This document shows, piece after piece, positions 11,610 to 17,686 of a DNA stretch of 47,671 nucleotides. Below the pieces are notes generated by a model. It searched no databases. It saw nothing but the letters and a program-made list of their open reading frames with translations, and was not told the DNA's origin. The first letter of the stretch is position 1. Every line of letters begins with the position of its first letter. This stretch comes from Clostridiales bacterium (GTDB lineage Bacteria > Bacillota > Clostridia > Oscillospirales > Oscillospiraceae): positions 32,343 through 80,013 of the forward strand of contig JAAVHV010000015.1 in NCBI GenBank assembly GCA_014799505.1. The letters are read 5' to 3'. The position numbers and the translations under genes are program-made.

Positions 11610-11681
11610 AAAAGAAGAAACGCCCTGGACGTGCTGCCGCGCCTGTTCGAATACCTTCAGCAGCTGCTCCTGAGAAAATAA
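11610..11681 (+). pseudogene. Possible C-terminal remnant of a lost gene
   Basis: In the +1 frame relative to the preceding lipoprotein gene, the sequence reads KRRNALDVLPRLFEYLQQLL and a few more residues before TAA. There is no start codon. It looks like the amphipathic end of a protein and may be a scrap left by deletion. It could equally be chance. Confidence 0.2.
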
Positions 11682-11717
11682 CAAGACCTGAGTATAATAA
11701 TATACTCAGGTCTTGTT
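11680..11717 (+). terminator. Perfect 17-bp hairpin, probable terminator
   Basis: Positions 11680-11696 pair perfectly with 11701-11717 around a 4-nt loop (ATAA), starting just after the lipoprotein gene. The downstream T-run is short (TTT), and the hairpin is symmetric enough to act on both strands, shielding the AT-rich operon on the right. Confidence 0.65.
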
Positions 11718-11802: not shown

Positions 11803-12717
11803 TCATCCAGACAGCCGGTCAGCTAAGCAGGTAGTAGAGTATGGTTTCTCATCAATATTTGTATTTGTCAATTGTTCCAGGCATGGATCCTTTAAATTAC
11901 AAATCAAATATGCAGTATCATTTTTTACACAAGCACATGGGTAAATATCACCGCTTAATGTAACATAGAGCAAATTTTTTCCTGCCTGACAGCCGCATGA
12001 ATCCTTAAGAGGACGGCAGGGAGCCAACTTCGGAATGCTGGAAAATGTGATCCTTGTTGGCAGTTCCTCTCTGCTTGAATGGATAGAGGTAACTGTCTGA
12101 AGATATTCCTGATCAGAAAGGCCAATCGTATCCCAGTGGTTCGAAGCGTTCCCATGTTGTATTAATTTCAGCAAACGTACTTCAGAAACGTTCAGCTCGC
12201 TTACAAAATTGGTGATGGCTCGAATACGACTGGAGTTAAATCGAGTCACGACTAAGTTTATCCTGGTATCAATTCCGACCGCGACCATGTTCTTAATGGC
12301 CTGTACAGTCTTTATAAATGAACCGGTTGTATTTGTCATGTAGTCATGCCACGTTTCTTCATCGCTATAAAGTGAAACATAACAGATTCGAAGTCCGGCT
12401 TGATATAATTGCGTCAAATAATCTGATCCCACAGGAACAAGGCCGTCGCTGCTCTGAATAATTCCAGTTGTAAAAAGTGCTAGTTTGCACGTGGGGGACT
12501 GGGAAGTAATCTCCGAGCATAACGGCAAAAGATTTTGAAACAACAGGGGTTCTCCCCCTGTAAAATAAATCTCACAAGGATCGACCGCTTTCACTAATCG
12601 CAGCACATCTTTTGGCTCATATTGTATGCTTTCTTTTTTGATTGCTTGAGAAGAACAGTGTTTGCATGTCAAGATACAATTCGGTTCAAGCTCAAAATGC
12701 AACTCAAAATTTGCCAT
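11803..12717 (-). CDS. Radical SAM protein with SPASM-like C-terminal cysteines
   Basis: A 304-residue protein. The N-terminus has the radical SAM cluster motif CxxxCxxC (CILTCKHC, from about residue 13) and the SAM-binding YFTGGEPLL. Mid-protein carries RLLKLIQHGNA, similar to the strand seen in SPASM-family enzymes. The C-terminal part has CGCQAG, LSGDIYPCACVKND and a late Cys, suggesting one auxiliary Fe-S cluster. The reaction is not identifiable. AAGGAGATATTT just before ATG 12717 fixes the start. It is the last gene of a four-gene AT-rich operon, 13 nt after the kinase. The final eight or so codons are GC-rich like the flanking chromosome, so the original C-terminus may have been altered at the island border. 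A viperin-like enzyme is an alternative, but viperins lack SPASM cysteines. Confidence 0.8.
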   Translation of the reverse strand: MANFELHFELEPNCILTCKHCSSQAIKKESIQYEPKDVLRLVKAVDPCEIYFTGGEPLLFQNLLPLCSEITSQSPTCKLALFTTGIIQSSDGLVPVGSDYLTQLYQAGLRICYVSLYSDEETWHDYMTNTTGSFIKTVQAIKNMVAVGIDTRINLVVTRFNSSRIRAITNFVSELNVSEVRLLKLIQHGNASNHWDTIGLSDQEYLQTVTSIHSSREELPTRITFSSIPKLAPCRPLKDSCGCQAGKNLLYVTLSGDIYPCACVKNDTAYLICNLKDPCLEQLTNTNIDEKPYSTTCLADRLSG

Positions 12718-12730
12718 AAATATCTCCTTA

Positions 12731-13372
12731 TCAATGAGCAAAGTACGCTTTTATTTTCTCCCAGATTTCGGCCTCTAAAATATGCTCCTCCTTTTCTCCA
12801 TCTACAATCAATACGTTTTCTACATCTTTTAGCTTTTCAAACGCTTCAAAATACTTTTCCCGAACAGAAATAAGACGTTCCCTGGTTTCAAATAATTCCG
12901 GATGAAAACGTGTTTTTGCAATTCTCTTCAGCGCGTTATCGGGATTTACATCAACAAATATCGTAACCGAAGGACGCAGTATTTCAGCGCTCTGAGAATT
13001 TGCCTCAATGACCCAGTCCATTGGCATATCAACACTGTGATAGGCGTAGGAAGAAAAATAGTAGCGATCAGAAATCACGGAGGTGCCGTCCATAATCTTT
13101 GCGTAAATTCCGTTGGTCGGATTTAAAAGATGATCCAGACGATCCGCGACAAACAGGGCCGCTATCACTTTATTATCGCTCAGCACCCTCCCCGTCATAA
13201 TCTGGTGGATCAGTGATCCTATGGGAGAATCTGTTGGCTCACAGGTGCTGTAGCAGTTAATTCCCTCTCGCTGAAGCCGCTGTTTCAATAAGGTGATCTG
13301 GGTGCTTTTCCCGCTCCCATCGATTCCCTCAAATGCGATAAAGGCCCCTTTTTTATTTGTCGTCTTTTGCAT
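12731..13372 (-). CDS. tmk: Thymidylate kinase-like (d)NMP kinase
   Basis: About 213 residues from the chosen start MQKTTNKKG. It has the P-loop FEGIDGSGKST, the DRYY segment (SDRYYFSSYAY) and FVDVNPDNALKRI followed by a lid region. The second motif reads EPTDSPIGSLI rather than the EPGGT of housekeeping bacterial enzymes, and LFVADRLDHL follows. This resembles archaeal or accessory dTMP kinases, so a separate housekeeping tmk is likely elsewhere. The expected reaction is phosphorylation of dTMP or a related nucleotide using ATP. ATG at 13390 and a frame to 13438 are alternatives; 13372 gives the usual family N-terminus with AGAGG upstream. It overlaps the MazG gene by 20 nt. In this operon it probably acts on a special nucleotide made or spared by its neighbours. 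Confidence 0.85.
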   Translation of the reverse strand: MQKTTNKKGAFIAFEGIDGSGKSTQITLLKQRLQREGINCYSTCEPTDSPIGSLIHQIMTGRVLSDNKVIAALFVADRLDHLLNPTNGIYAKIMDGTSVISDRYYFSSYAYHSVDMPMDWVIEANSQSAEILRPSVTIFVDVNPDNALKRIAKTRFHPELFETRERLISVREKYFEAFEKLKDVENVLIVDGEKEEHILEAEIWEKIKAYFAH

Positions 13373-13700
13373 ATTTGGCAAACCTCTCATAATTCTTTCT
13401 GTTTTTTTCAAGGTAAGCTTGCTCAAGATCAAAGCCAAGCTGATAGGTCAGCTTCAAAAGATACGCAAATATATCAGCAATTTCTTCTTGAAGCTCCGCC
13501 TGTTTTTCGCACAGGGAACAGTCCCCGCGCCAGATCTTTTTTACCAGGTTTGAAGTTTCTCCCACCTCCCCCGACAGAGCGAGGAGGGTAAAGCCCAGCA
13601 TAGGGATATTATCCTGAGAAATCGTGGTATCCCACTGAAAATCACTTTCATGCTGTTCATCAAATTGTCTCTGGATATCAGCTAATTCTTTTAAAGTCAT
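13353..13700 (-). CDS. MazG-type nucleotide pyrophosphohydrolase
   Basis: A 115-residue all-alpha protein with the MazG metal site EVGETSNLVKK (ExxE) and, about 28 residues later, EEIADIFAYLL (ExxD). Members hydrolyse NTPs or dNTPs to the monophosphate and pyrophosphate; short forms like this act as dimers or tetramers. The start ATG overlaps the phosphoesterase stop (ATGA), so translation is coupled, and the end overlaps the kinase gene by 20 nt. It could remove a particular triphosphate pool or sanitise modified nucleotides. Base composition is AT-rich like the rest of the island. The exact substrate cannot be read. Confidence 0.88.
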   Translation of the reverse strand: MTLKELADIQRQFDEQHESDFQWDTTISQDNIPMLGFTLLALSGEVGETSNLVKKIWRGDCSLCEKQAELQEEIADIFAYLLKLTYQLGFDLEQAYLEKNRKNYERFAKYAKDDK

Positions 13701-15607
13701 GGTTCCTTCAGCCTTTCAAATCCTTCTATCAGAAGATCGTATTGATGTTCGATATCCTCCTCAAGGGCATCCATATCTTCCGTCGGCTCGGAATGGCTTG
13801 CCCTGCGTTTTTTCAGCTCGTTCAGCATGTCCAGAAGATTTTTTGTGTATGTACATACCTGGTCGAGCTTGGACAATAGAGTTTCTTTGCCGGCCGGCAT
13901 ACCATTTTTTACATCCATAATAGAGTTCAACAGATTTTCAACACCTGCCGTCACAATCACGGTCTCCGAGCGCAGCTTTTTATCCCGGATCAAACGTATA
14001 ACATATTCAATTTGGCCAGTGATAACGGTTGGATCATTGCTGTATCTCAAGCACGCGAGCGTTATCGCCATTTCATTGCTCTGTGCCAGCGTATCAAGCT
14101 TTGCCTTGAGGAAGCAGCCGAATTGCTCTTTGATCTGAACACGAAACGCTGAAACTGCCACCTCGATATTCTGAAACGGATATGTCTCATGGATCTTTTG
14201 GGCAAGGAACAATATTTCACAGATATTGATTTTGAGAAAACGGTTCGCCTCCAGCGCCCGCAGATTCATTGTGATATGCAGTGTGGTCATATCCCGGTCA
14301 AAACCGACCTGAATGGATAGCAGCGAGGGAAGTAATGCGTCGGGAGCGGTCTGAGAAATATCTTTGCTGTTGACTGTCACTAAAACCGCCCGGCTGCTGG
14401 TCATTTTCTGACTGAGCTCATGAATAATATAGTCGATTCCGGATTGGTGCTGTTTTGTGCAGAAATTCTTGCCGTGATTAAAATACAAAACTTTCTCATC
14501 CAGCTCGGAATCCTGCCACATTTCCGCCAGCTCGGTATAGGAATATTCCTTGTCGAATGTTTTTAGCTCTACTTTTTTGCCAAAATTTTCTGTAACATCG
14601 GAGCAAAATTGATCAAAGCGGGATTTGACATGCAGATTAACATGGTACAGCTTTGATTCAGCCCGCACCTTTTTCGTGAGCTCATCATATACCCTGGAAA
14701 AGGTTGTTCCGTAAAAATAATTATTCTCCTTCGAAATGGGTATGGAAATTTTCTCAAATCCATCAGTTCCCGGATTCATTGCCCAATCCGCATGATACTG
14801 ATAATTGTCCGCGGATATGGGGATTCCGCTGTTGCAGCGGATCAGATTGAACTGGGAATTTACATTTGGAAAATCTCTTACATAAGCTGCGCCGACACTT
14901 ATGATCGGGCACCCCTCAGTTCCAATACGAATCATGTACTGCCCATGGGTGTGTCCGTGAAAGACCGCCTTTACAGCGTATTGGTTAATCAACTCTATGA
15001 GCTTGGGCACCTGACGGATGGAGGACTGATCTCTTTCATCCATGCTCATAAGGGTATGATGCAATATAAAATACTTGGTCGAGTCTGCGGGGAGTGTTTT
15101 CAGCGTATTTTCCAAATAGTCATAATCAATTTGGCCGTGGCTGAAATCTGACGGGGGGCATGAATTGATAAAAATAAGATCTACATTTTCGGAGTCGAGA
15201 TGAAGGCTGTATGTTTTGTCAATGTCAGTTGATGCAATCGCTTGAGAAAACCGATTCACTGCATCTATATGTGTTGTGTCATGGTTGCCAACACAAAGAC
15301 CGACTTTAAATTTATACTTATATTTTTTCTTCAAAGGGTCAATGACCGTTGACATAAGAGCATCTTTTGCTTCCTCGTAGCGGGATTCTACTTCAGCATC
15401 TGTCAGATCCCGCGTTCCCGTTGAGGTTCCGTCCGAAACCGGTTTGCTGTCGATGTAGTCGCCGCAGGCGCAAAAGACAACCTCTGCATCCGATGGAATT
15501 TCAGCTTGGATTCTTTCTGCCATCTTTTTCAGGATATCTTTTTCTGATTCAGAACCAAGATGGGATCCTCCAAAATGAAAATCGGCCATTTGGACGATAT
15601 AAAACAT
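13697..15607 (-). CDS. Metallophosphoesterase fused to a thymidylate-synthase-like domain
   Basis: A 636-residue cytoplasmic protein. Residues 1-270 are a calcineurin-like phosphoesterase with all metal motifs: ADFHFGG (DxH), CGDYIDS near 48, VGNHDT near 107, ILHHTL, and FHGHTHG near 219. Residues 375-470 can be aligned with thymidylate synthase: IDYIIHELSQ, then SSRAVLV (phosphate-binding Arg region), LLPSLLSIQ where the catalytic Cys is expected, LHITMNLRALEAN, and FLKINICEIL (the FNIAS region). The catalytic Cys position appears to be Ser or Leu, so this part is probably a nucleotide-binding rather than methylating domain. The last 150 residues are helical with a charged tail. ATG 15607 has GAGAGG upstream. 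First gene of the AT-rich operon; it may cleave a nucleotide or nucleic acid in response to (d)UMP-like ligands (inference). Confidence 0.82.
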   Translation of the reverse strand: MFYIVQMADFHFGGSHLGSESEKDILKKMAERIQAEIPSDAEVVFCACGDYIDSKPVSDGTSTGTRDLTDAEVESRYEEAKDALMSTVIDPLKKKYKYKFKVGLCVGNHDTTHIDAVNRFSQAIASTDIDKTYSLHLDSENVDLIFINSCPPSDFSHGQIDYDYLENTLKTLPADSTKYFILHHTLMSMDERDQSSIRQVPKLIELINQYAVKAVFHGHTHGQYMIRIGTEGCPIISVGAAYVRDFPNVNSQFNLIRCNSGIPISADNYQYHADWAMNPGTDGFEKISIPISKENNYFYGTTFSRVYDELTKKVRAESKLYHVNLHVKSRFDQFCSDVTENFGKKVELKTFDKEYSYTELAEMWQDSELDEKVLYFNHGKNFCTKQHQSGIDYIIHELSQKMTSSRAVLVTVNSKDISQTAPDALLPSLLSIQVGFDRDMTTLHITMNLRALEANRFLKINICEILFLAQKIHETYPFQNIEVAVSAFRVQIKEQFGCFLKAKLDTLAQSNEMAITLACLRYSNDPTVITGQIEYVIRLIRDKKLRSETVIVTAGVENLLNSIMDVKNGMPAGKETLLSKLDQVCTYTKNLLDMLNELKKRRASHSEPTEDMDALEEDIEHQYDLLIEGFERLKEP

Positions 15608-15940
15608 GATCAGGCCTCTCTTTCTAAATCTATCATCGGCAATCAGCAATTACGATTCTCAAAGTAGCGTACTCGGCATATACGACAAACTTTTACTATG
15701 ACGCTGCTCTTTCCCTTCCCAAATGCAGGAGTAACCAAAATCTTTGATTTCAAGTCTTTGGCGATACCAATGCGTTATTTTTGCTGATAATTTCTTTTAA
15801 TTTTTTAAGTATATCAGATTTACAGCAAAAACGCAACGGCCTAATTGAAGCAGCGAAAATCAATTTTCAGTAAAGACATCCTAAATGTTCAAATTGCGTT
15901 ATAATAAAATTTTAAATTGTGATATTCTTTTCAAAAAAAG
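15608..15940. other. AT-rich intergenic region upstream of the phosphoesterase operon
   Basis: This 333-nt stretch contains the promoter at 15808-15836 and a long leader. I see no convincing open reading frame, tRNA or repeat in it. Its composition matches the four-gene island, so the island probably extends to the terminator beginning at 15941. Confidence 0.5.
15808..15836 (-). promoter_or_regulatory. Probable promoter of the AT-rich nucleotide operon
   Basis: Minus-strand TTGCGT (15836-15831) and TATACT (15813-15808) with a 17-nt spacer. The leader to the ATG at 15607 is about 195 nt. Confidence 0.55.
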
Positions 15941-15983
15941 AAAGAAGCCTGTCTTTTGAATCAATCAAAAGACAGGCTTCTTT
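15941..15983 (-). terminator. Terminator of the ABC transporter operon
   Basis: Perfect 19-bp inverted repeat, 15941-15959 with 15965-15983, loop of 5 nt. On the minus strand it is followed by a T-run (complement of 15932-15939), so it terminates transcription coming from the ATPase gene. It also marks the right edge of the AT-rich island. Confidence 0.88.

Positions 15984-16063: not shown

Positions 16064-17686
<1,623 letters not shown>

What the first reader, a model, noticed from the sequence alone, without database searches (positions are those of the whole stretch)
11803..15836. AT-rich four-gene operon: phosphoesterase/TS-like fusion, MazG, dTMP-kinase-like and radical SAM proteins
Seen: four minus-strand genes joined by an ATGA overlap, a 20-nt overlap and a 13-nt gap, with their own promoter, and AT-richer than both flanks (one sampled line is 28/60 G+C, against 43/60 in the pyr operon). 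Known: MazG enzymes hydrolyse (d)NTPs, dTMP kinases phosphorylate dNMPs, calcineurin-like phosphoesterases cut phosphoesters. Inference: the set makes, removes or senses a particular nucleotide and could be a phage-defence, nucleotide-modification or signalling cassette. I do not know a named system with this composition.
Basis: partly seen in the sequence, partly recalled or inferred. Interest (0 to 1): 0.85.

Follow-up and report, generated by a model that had tools for sequence, protein, structure and literature searches.

The report
Mobile nucleotide-handling cassette, candidate phage defence
A small group of four genes that seems to handle DNA building blocks travels together between unrelated bacteria, often beside known or suspected virus-defence genes, and is best read as a new, still untested, way of fighting bacterial viruses.

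Summary
In detail: four minus-strand genes at 11803-15607, joined as described, 43% G+C in a window otherwise at 61%. They are no chance neighbourhood. Gene 1 encodes a metallophosphoesterase fused to a thymidylate-synthase-fold domain whose catalytic cysteine is serine in 7 of 7 aligned copies. The set recurs in the same order at six separate sites in two phyla: phosphoesterase and TS-like parts at all six (separate genes at two), MazG at five, radical SAM at five, the kinase at three. In E. coli a real thymidylate synthase replaces the radical SAM. At four of six sites known or candidate defence genes adjoin, once a Wadjet III operon around it. It is patchy; five same-genus genomes lack it. 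In NCBIfam the phosphoesterase is nearest to the anti-phage DS-8/DS-9 proteins, but controls show only a subfamily link. I found no named system of this composition in the libraries and papers searched. Best reading: a nucleotide-centred anti-phage cassette that alters, degrades or senses a pyrimidine nucleotide. Defence is inferred from location and kinship; nothing was assayed, no background rate was measured, and the radical SAM substrate (nucleotide or peptide) is open.

The parts
13697..15607 (-). Gene 1: metallophosphoesterase fused to a TS-like domain, 636 aa from the ATG
   Evidence: PF00149 2.8e-9; AlphaFold model mean pLDDT 78.3; relatives
14723..15607 (-). Metallophosphoesterase domain with the metal-ligand motifs (DxH, GD, GNHD, HH, HGHxH), 5 of 5 aligned
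14120..14731 (-). TS-fold domain, catalytic Cys replaced by Ser (LPS or IPS in place of PC), one Arg and one Asn of the TS pattern kept
13697..14032 (-). C-terminal helical tail of gene 1
   Evidence: DSSP of the model
13353..13700 (-). Gene 2: MazG-like (d)NTP pyrophosphohydrolase, 115 aa, ExxE...EExxD kept 6 of 6
12731..13372 (-). Gene 3: dTMP-kinase-family protein, second copy in this genome
   Evidence: TIGR00041 153.3 bits, cut-off 83.25; second copy and tree
11803..12717 (-). Gene 4: radical SAM protein, CxxxCxxC plus five conserved C-terminal Cys, 6 of 6
   Evidence: PF04055 5e-9; motifs; model pLDDT 82.5 and matches
15808..15836 (-). Possible promoter TTGCGT-17-TATACT, seen by eye, 8 of 12
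   Evidence: sequence; below the threshold of the scan
11680..11717 (-). Perfect 17-bp hairpin downstream of the operon, terminator-like
15941..15983 (-). Perfect 19-bp hairpin ahead of the operon, terminator-like, probably of the upstream ABC genes

Best explanation
It is a horizontally moving anti-phage cassette built around a pyrimidine nucleotide. Shown: the gene set recurs in fixed order in two phyla, in the window as DNA of foreign composition and at four of six sites beside known or candidate defence genes; the phosphoesterase, MazG, kinase and radical SAM motifs are intact, and the TS-like domain has the TS fold (by prediction) without its catalytic cysteine. Inferred: the TS-like domain binds a pyrimidine mononucleotide and gates or aims the phosphoesterase; MazG turns (d)NTP into (d)NMP; the radical SAM enzyme (a true thymidylate-synthase relative in E. 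coli) alters the base or sugar; the kinase, where present, re-phosphorylates the product. During infection this would starve or poison phage nucleic-acid synthesis, with the phosphoesterase as effector or as self-protection. The direction of flow is a guess.
For: Order phosphoesterase, TS-like, MazG, (kinase), radical SAM or TS at six separate sites. Neighbours at four of six: inside a Wadjet III operon with JetA 1e-199, JetB 3e-101, JetC 8e-91, JetD 2e-92 plus an AbiLi-like gene at 5e-80; a type III-like methylase at 2.8e-50 with a partner ORF that looks helicase-like by eye; candidate pair PDC-M02A/B 3.4e-63 and 5e-152 and a TrlF-family gene (over its NCBIfam cut-off; Ppl model 6e-46 in PADLOC); E. 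coli islands with transposases, a candidate PDC-S50 gene in the one scanned and integrases in another. Phosphoesterase nearest to DS-9/DS-8 anti-phage models, 2.5e-13 to 1.5e-23 in four relatives, 9 to 20 orders better than the best other phosphodiesterase model. TS fold by structure, Ser for Cys in 7 of 7. Radical SAM and TS swap at the same place in the operon. Kinase clade apart from the common family form. Patchy: 2 of 300 family genomes incl. own, none of the 5 same-genus genomes listed, 5 of 5426 E. coli genomes. Phages and viral contigs gave no relative of the TS-like part.
Confidence: 0.55

Rival explanations
1. Plain nucleotide depletion: MazG takes dNTP to dNMP and the phosphoesterase takes dNMP to nucleoside when the TS-like domain senses an altered dTMP/dUMP pool in infection; no new nucleotide is made.
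For: MazG and phosphoesterase motifs intact; 5'-nucleotidase among the structural matches; phosphoesterase and TS-like are the only parts at all six sites.
Against: Does not explain a radical SAM or TS gene at every site, nor a kinase that would undo the loss.
Confidence: 0.17
2. A metabolic or pool-cleaning set (house-cleaning of odd nucleotides, salvage) carried on mobile DNA, not defence.
For: Kinase, MazG and TS are nucleotide families; no defence neighbour was seen at two of six sites; in G131 the cassette kinase is the only one found.
Against: Known or candidate defence genes at four of six sites, once within a Wadjet III operon; very patchy; phosphoesterase nearest to anti-phage models.
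Confidence: 0.15
3. The radical SAM protein modifies a peptide or a partner protein, and the cassette is a peptide-based or toxin-like system that only borrows nucleotide folds.
Against: Replaced by a thymidylate synthase in E. coli; viperin, BlsE and MoaA within 2.5 Z units; nearest PDB chain by sequence is the nucleoside enzyme BlsE. I noticed no precursor-peptide ORF but made no search for one.
Confidence: 0.1
4. A base-replacement kit of phage origin, kept by the cell, or a counter-defence set.
For: Kinase, MazG and TS match phage protein families; the chemistry (dNTPase, dNMP-altering enzyme, dNMP kinase) mirrors phage base replacement (recalled).
Against: No match to the TS-like part in 50,697 phage records with three queries (one search found three phosphoesterase-only records) nor in three scans of viral contigs, which test only for a few short patterns.
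Confidence: 0.03

Closest known systems
DS-8 and DS-9 anti-phage systems (DefensePredictor, PMC13092281)
   Same: A calcineurin-like metallophosphatase; four cassette relatives match their NCBIfam models best and the fold is close to SMPDL3A, to which DS-8 is compared in the paper. In DS-8/DS-9 the metallophosphatase residues are needed for defence (section 7).
   Different: DS-8 has a NACHT domain and DS-9 a HAD phosphatase; TS-like, MazG and radical SAM parts are not described for either there. Scores far below the equivalog cut-offs.
DefensePredictor system(s) with TS, dNMP kinase, 5hmdU kinase and NMAD domains (PMC13092281, passages only)
   Same: Thymidylate synthase is among the domains first validated in defence there, and dNMP kinase is abbreviated in the same figure legend.
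   Different: Which of these domains share a system could not be read; MazG appears only among predicted, untested systems. Figures and supplements not seen.
Prokaryotic viperins (pVip) with kinase
   Different: 35.1 bits against a cut-off of 180; SPASM-like Cys-rich tail (PF13186 0.11); extra phosphoesterase/TS-like and MazG.
Thymidylate synthase / dCMP hydroxymethylase fold
   Same: Fold and weak profile matches in window, L034 and E. coli copies.
   Different: Catalytic Cys is Ser in 7 of 7; fused to or beside a phosphoesterase.

Membership tests
DS-8 / DS-9 anti-phage phosphoesterase | Score over the equivalog cut-off (790 or 420 bits) | tested here: not met
   Window 25.5 bits for DS-9; best relative 83.5 bits
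DS-8 / DS-9 anti-phage phosphoesterase | Metallophosphoesterase domain with intact metal ligands | tested here: met
   5 of 5 aligned copies
DS-8 / DS-9 anti-phage phosphoesterase | NACHT partner (DS-8) or HAD partner (DS-9) | tested here: not met
   Gene 1 matches only metallophosphoesterase and TS profiles in Pfam, and no HAD or NACHT family among the four gene products
Prokaryotic viperin | NCBIfam viperin model over cut-off | tested here: not met
   35.1 of 180 bits
Prokaryotic viperin | Makes ddhNTP | not testable with these tools
   needs an assay
Thymidylate synthase | Catalytic cysteine in the PC motif | tested here: not met
   PS in 7 of 7
Thymidylate synthase | TS fold | tested here: met
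dTMP kinase | TIGR00041 over cut-off | tested here: met
   153.3 against 83.25 bits; substrate not tested
MazG-type pyrophosphohydrolase | ExxE...ExxD metal motif | tested here: met
   6 of 6
Radical SAM enzyme | CxxxCxxC and PF04055 over cut-off | tested here: met
   37 of 29.5 bits; 6 of 6
A named defence system of PADLOC 2.0.0 or NCBIfam 20.0 | The set or its TS-like part has a model | tested here: inconclusive
   No PADLOC match to the TS-like part and only sub-threshold TS models in NCBIfam; whole-system rules not run
Anti-phage defence system | Protects cells from phage | not testable with these tools
   needs plaque assays

The most novel reading that the evidence does not exclude
A new class of immunity in which a dead thymidylate synthase is the sensor: it reads a pyrimidine mononucleotide that changes in phage infection and switches on a fused SMPDL3A-like phosphoesterase, while an exchangeable enzyme (radical SAM in Clostridia and their kin, thymidylate synthase in E. 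coli) makes a modified pyrimidine nucleotide used as poison or signal, with MazG and a private dTMP-kinase-like enzyme steering that pool.
Probability: 0.25. Interest if true: 0.9.

Novelty: new variant of a known kind. Interest (0 to 1): 0.72.

Why it matters
If it is defence, it would join radical SAM or TS chemistry, nucleotide breakdown and a cysteine-less thymidylate synthase in one immune cassette shared by Clostridia and E. coli. It would link two threads that are open now: the unknown substrates of the DS-8/DS-9 phosphoesterases (stated as unknown in PMC13092281, section 7) and the use of modified nucleotides against phages. The E. coli form has four genes annotated as intact and is directly testable in laboratory strains.

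Tried and rejected
Viperin membership: rejected on score, though the folds are close. A link to DS-8/DS-9 as membership: rejected, and the control showed that the resemblance is not unique to the cassette.

Empty site in close relatives: tried with the flanking ABC gene in five same-genus genomes; the best matches were pieces 42-53% identical, so no orthologous site could be read. No other empty-site test was made.

Matches not counted as cassettes: in genomes, phosphoesterase-region matches L005, L012/L020, L015, L017, L025-L029, L031, L033 and TS-region matches L016, L030, L066, L067. L020 was read as a long protein with a NACHT-like part; L025, L026 and L028 were used as controls; L016, L030, L066 and L067 were not followed. 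In plasmids, 211 records matched gene 1 of L018, only two of them over at least 80% of it; of the other 209 I read two, L058 and L059.

Phage or viral carriers: searches gave none for the TS-like part; one search gave three phosphoesterase-only records, of which one, H23, was read. Plasmids: no match with the window's gene 1 at 1e-5; two E. coli plasmids with relatives, of which one was read.

Kinase tree: of 39 loci given to the script 36 gave a row; L049, L054 and L055 dropped out at the search step. Of the matches only those fetched as loci could be used. Two rows had very long branches.

Sets in print: ten searches of the paper library listed no paper whose title or abstract names this set. 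Of the papers listed I opened only PMC13092281: passages and section 7, not its figures or tables. The jumbo-phage paper PMC7824862, which holds all six terms, was not opened. The library holds no preprints and few subscription papers; PMC4678834 is not held.

VIA-align rows: the list for gene 1 is filled by the phosphoesterase half, so absent TS rows there mean nothing.
Full report
What is there. Four minus-strand genes lie at 11803-15607: a phosphoesterase/TS-like fusion, a MazG-like protein, a dTMP-kinase-family protein and a radical SAM protein. The stretch has 43.1% G+C against 60.6% in the rest of the window, and none of 725 overlapping same-length stretches outside it falls below 56.5%. 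Perfect hairpins stand on both sides (11680-11717 and 15941-15983). The promoter is only a weak match seen by eye, and the scan gives no more promoter-like sites than chance.

The phosphoesterase ligands (5 of 5), the MazG motif (6 of 6) and the radical SAM cysteines (6 of 6, plus five further conserved Cys) are intact in the aligned copies. So these look like working enzymes, while the TS-like part looks like a binder.

The set recurs. Separate sites: (A) the window, with L002 at 86% identity in a Clostridiales MAG beside the same ABC genes; (B) L006, same family, without MazG; (C) L018, same class, all genes; (D) L019, same class, no kinase; (E) L034, another class of the phylum, phosphoesterase and TS-like as separate genes, no kinase; (F) E. 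coli, phosphoesterase, TS-like, MazG, then a real thymidylate synthase (PF00303 1.1e-31) where the others have radical SAM; no kinase is annotated there. Order is kept throughout. F is on two conjugative plasmids (2 of 72,556 plasmid records; IncHI1B for the one read) and on the chromosomes of 5 of 5426 E. coli genomes.

It is rare and patchy. Full sets, own genome included: 2 of 300 in the family, 2 of 394 in the order, 3 of 391 in the class (the same three with a second profile), 2 of 348 in the phylum. Samples overlap. The tallies of those calls (3, 3, 7, 9, and 5) include weak partial matches that I do not count. The five same-genus genomes listed have none.

Neighbours. In C the set lies between JetB and JetC of a Wadjet III operon, with an AbiLi-like gene (4.9e-80). 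In D it lies beside a type III-like methylase (2.8e-50) and an adjacent ORF that looks helicase-like by eye and has no PADLOC match. In E it follows the candidate pair PDC-M02A/B and a gene over the cut-off of the TrlF family, which matches the PADLOC Ppl model at 6e-46 but lies below NCBIfam's Ppl cut-off. In F it lies in E. coli islands among transposases: in NZ_CP060075 with a candidate PDC-S50 gene, in NZ_CP168035 with integrases. For A and B three neighbours each were scanned and gave only matches that look spurious. So four of six, with known kinds of defence at C and D and mainly candidates at E and F. I measured no background rate. PADLOC without cut-offs gave 4.5e-26 to the window's ordinary ABC ATPase and 8.1e-27 to what looks by eye like an RNA methylase, so only far stronger matches, or sets fitting by order, are used. 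The TS-like part was not found in phage and viral collections, within the limits of those scans.

Kinship of the phosphoesterase. In L057, L034, L018 and L019 the best NCBIfam models are DS-9 or DS-8 (1.5e-23, 3.4e-23, 1e-16, 2.5e-13), with the best other phosphodiesterase at 8.7e-4, 9.1e-9, 2.5e-5 and 2.4e-4. The window's own copy gives only 5.3e-6, next best 0.061. Control, six other phosphoesterases: L025, a DS-8-like protein, 1.7e-46 for DS-8; L058 1.4e-16 for DS-8 and 4.8e-12 for SpdA; L028 1e-15 for DS-9 and 2e-11 for CpdA; L026 best SpdA 8.9e-28, DS-8 3e-11; L059 best acc_ester 1.7e-9, DS-8 5.7e-7; L020 (NACHT-like) best HyoA 2.6e-14, DS-9 7.6e-7. So the link is real but at the level of a subfamily. 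In PMC13092281, DS-8 and DS-9 need their metallophosphatase residues for defence and their targets are unknown (section 7).

The kinase. Own genome: a second copy at about 60% G+C on another contig, 52% identical. Of 125 family genomes 109 have some kinase match, mostly about 30% identical. In a 40-row tree (36 of 39 loci given plus the four cassette copies; three loci gave no row) the four cassette copies form one clade (99/97), sister to the chromosomal copy of the own genome, split 100/100 from 29 rows of the common family form; two rows had very long branches. That the 29 are housekeeping kinases is inferred. In G131, which carries set B, the cassette kinase is the only one found, so there it may also serve the cell. 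That counts against a purely private role. The other genes were not put in trees; their identities fall off in the same order of genomes.

The radical SAM protein. Sequence: best NCBIfam match HxsC (peptide maturase), 87 of 267.9 bits; viperin 35.1 of 180; in the PDB the nearest is BlsE, 8e-9. Structure (pLDDT 82.5): SkfB 23.9, SuiB 23.5, anSME 22.7, viperin 22.5, BlsE 21.8, MoaA 21.5. Peptide and nucleotide enzymes are nearly tied. The swap for a TS in E. coli is what tips me to a nucleotide.

Mechanism. Shown: gene set, order, patchy spread, intact motifs, predicted TS fold without Cys. Inferred: pyrimidine-nucleotide binding by the TS-like domain, its control of the phosphoesterase, alteration of a nucleotide by radical SAM or TS, and an effect on phages.

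Novelty. No PADLOC model and no NCBIfam or Pfam model over its cut-off fits the TS-like part, and ten paper searches listed nothing that names such a set (open-licence papers only, one paper opened). PMC13092281 counts a thymidylate synthase among newly validated defence domains, so the general kind is known; I could not see whether its tables hold this set.

Noticed in passing
L018 1277-17766: A Wadjet III operon is split: JetD, JetA and JetB, then an AbiLi-like gene, the cassette and an ATPase-like ORF (by eye), then JetC.
   Followed up: partly
L020 3618-8009: A 1463-aa protein with a related phosphoesterase domain and a NACHT-type part (HyoA/EruA models), DS-8-like in build.
   Followed up: partly
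L060 1-4191 (MT838439.1): An unverified phage scaffold carries a similar long phosphoesterase ORF with a P-loop seen by eye; it may be bacterial defence DNA.
   Followed up: no
L056 9334-9969: Second dTMP-kinase-family gene of the window's genome, G+C like its surroundings, 52% identical to the cassette copy.
   Followed up: yes
L061 14940-15894, L109 17940-18258, L110 17940-18894: In three of three E. coli chromosomes read, a hypothetical gene right after the TS gene is annotated as a fragment, followed by a transposase or integrase remnant; the four cassette genes before it are annotated as intact.
   Followed up: partly
L109 3109-21126: The E. coli island lies between yde/fim fimbrial genes and hipAB in this strain, a possible integration hotspot.
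   Followed up: no
window 16064-17686: The flanking ABC ATPase is 540 aa; relatives match its two ends in separate pieces (about residues 3-110 and 219-383), so it seems to carry an insert.
   Followed up: no
window 12731-13372: The kinase also matches PADLOC candidate PDC-M51B (1.8e-15), from a candidate system unknown to me.
   Followed up: no
L057 12028-12798: The E. coli phosphoesterase also matches PADLOC candidate PDC-S60 (1e-12) and an effector model (1.3e-8) over its first 87 residues.
   Followed up: no
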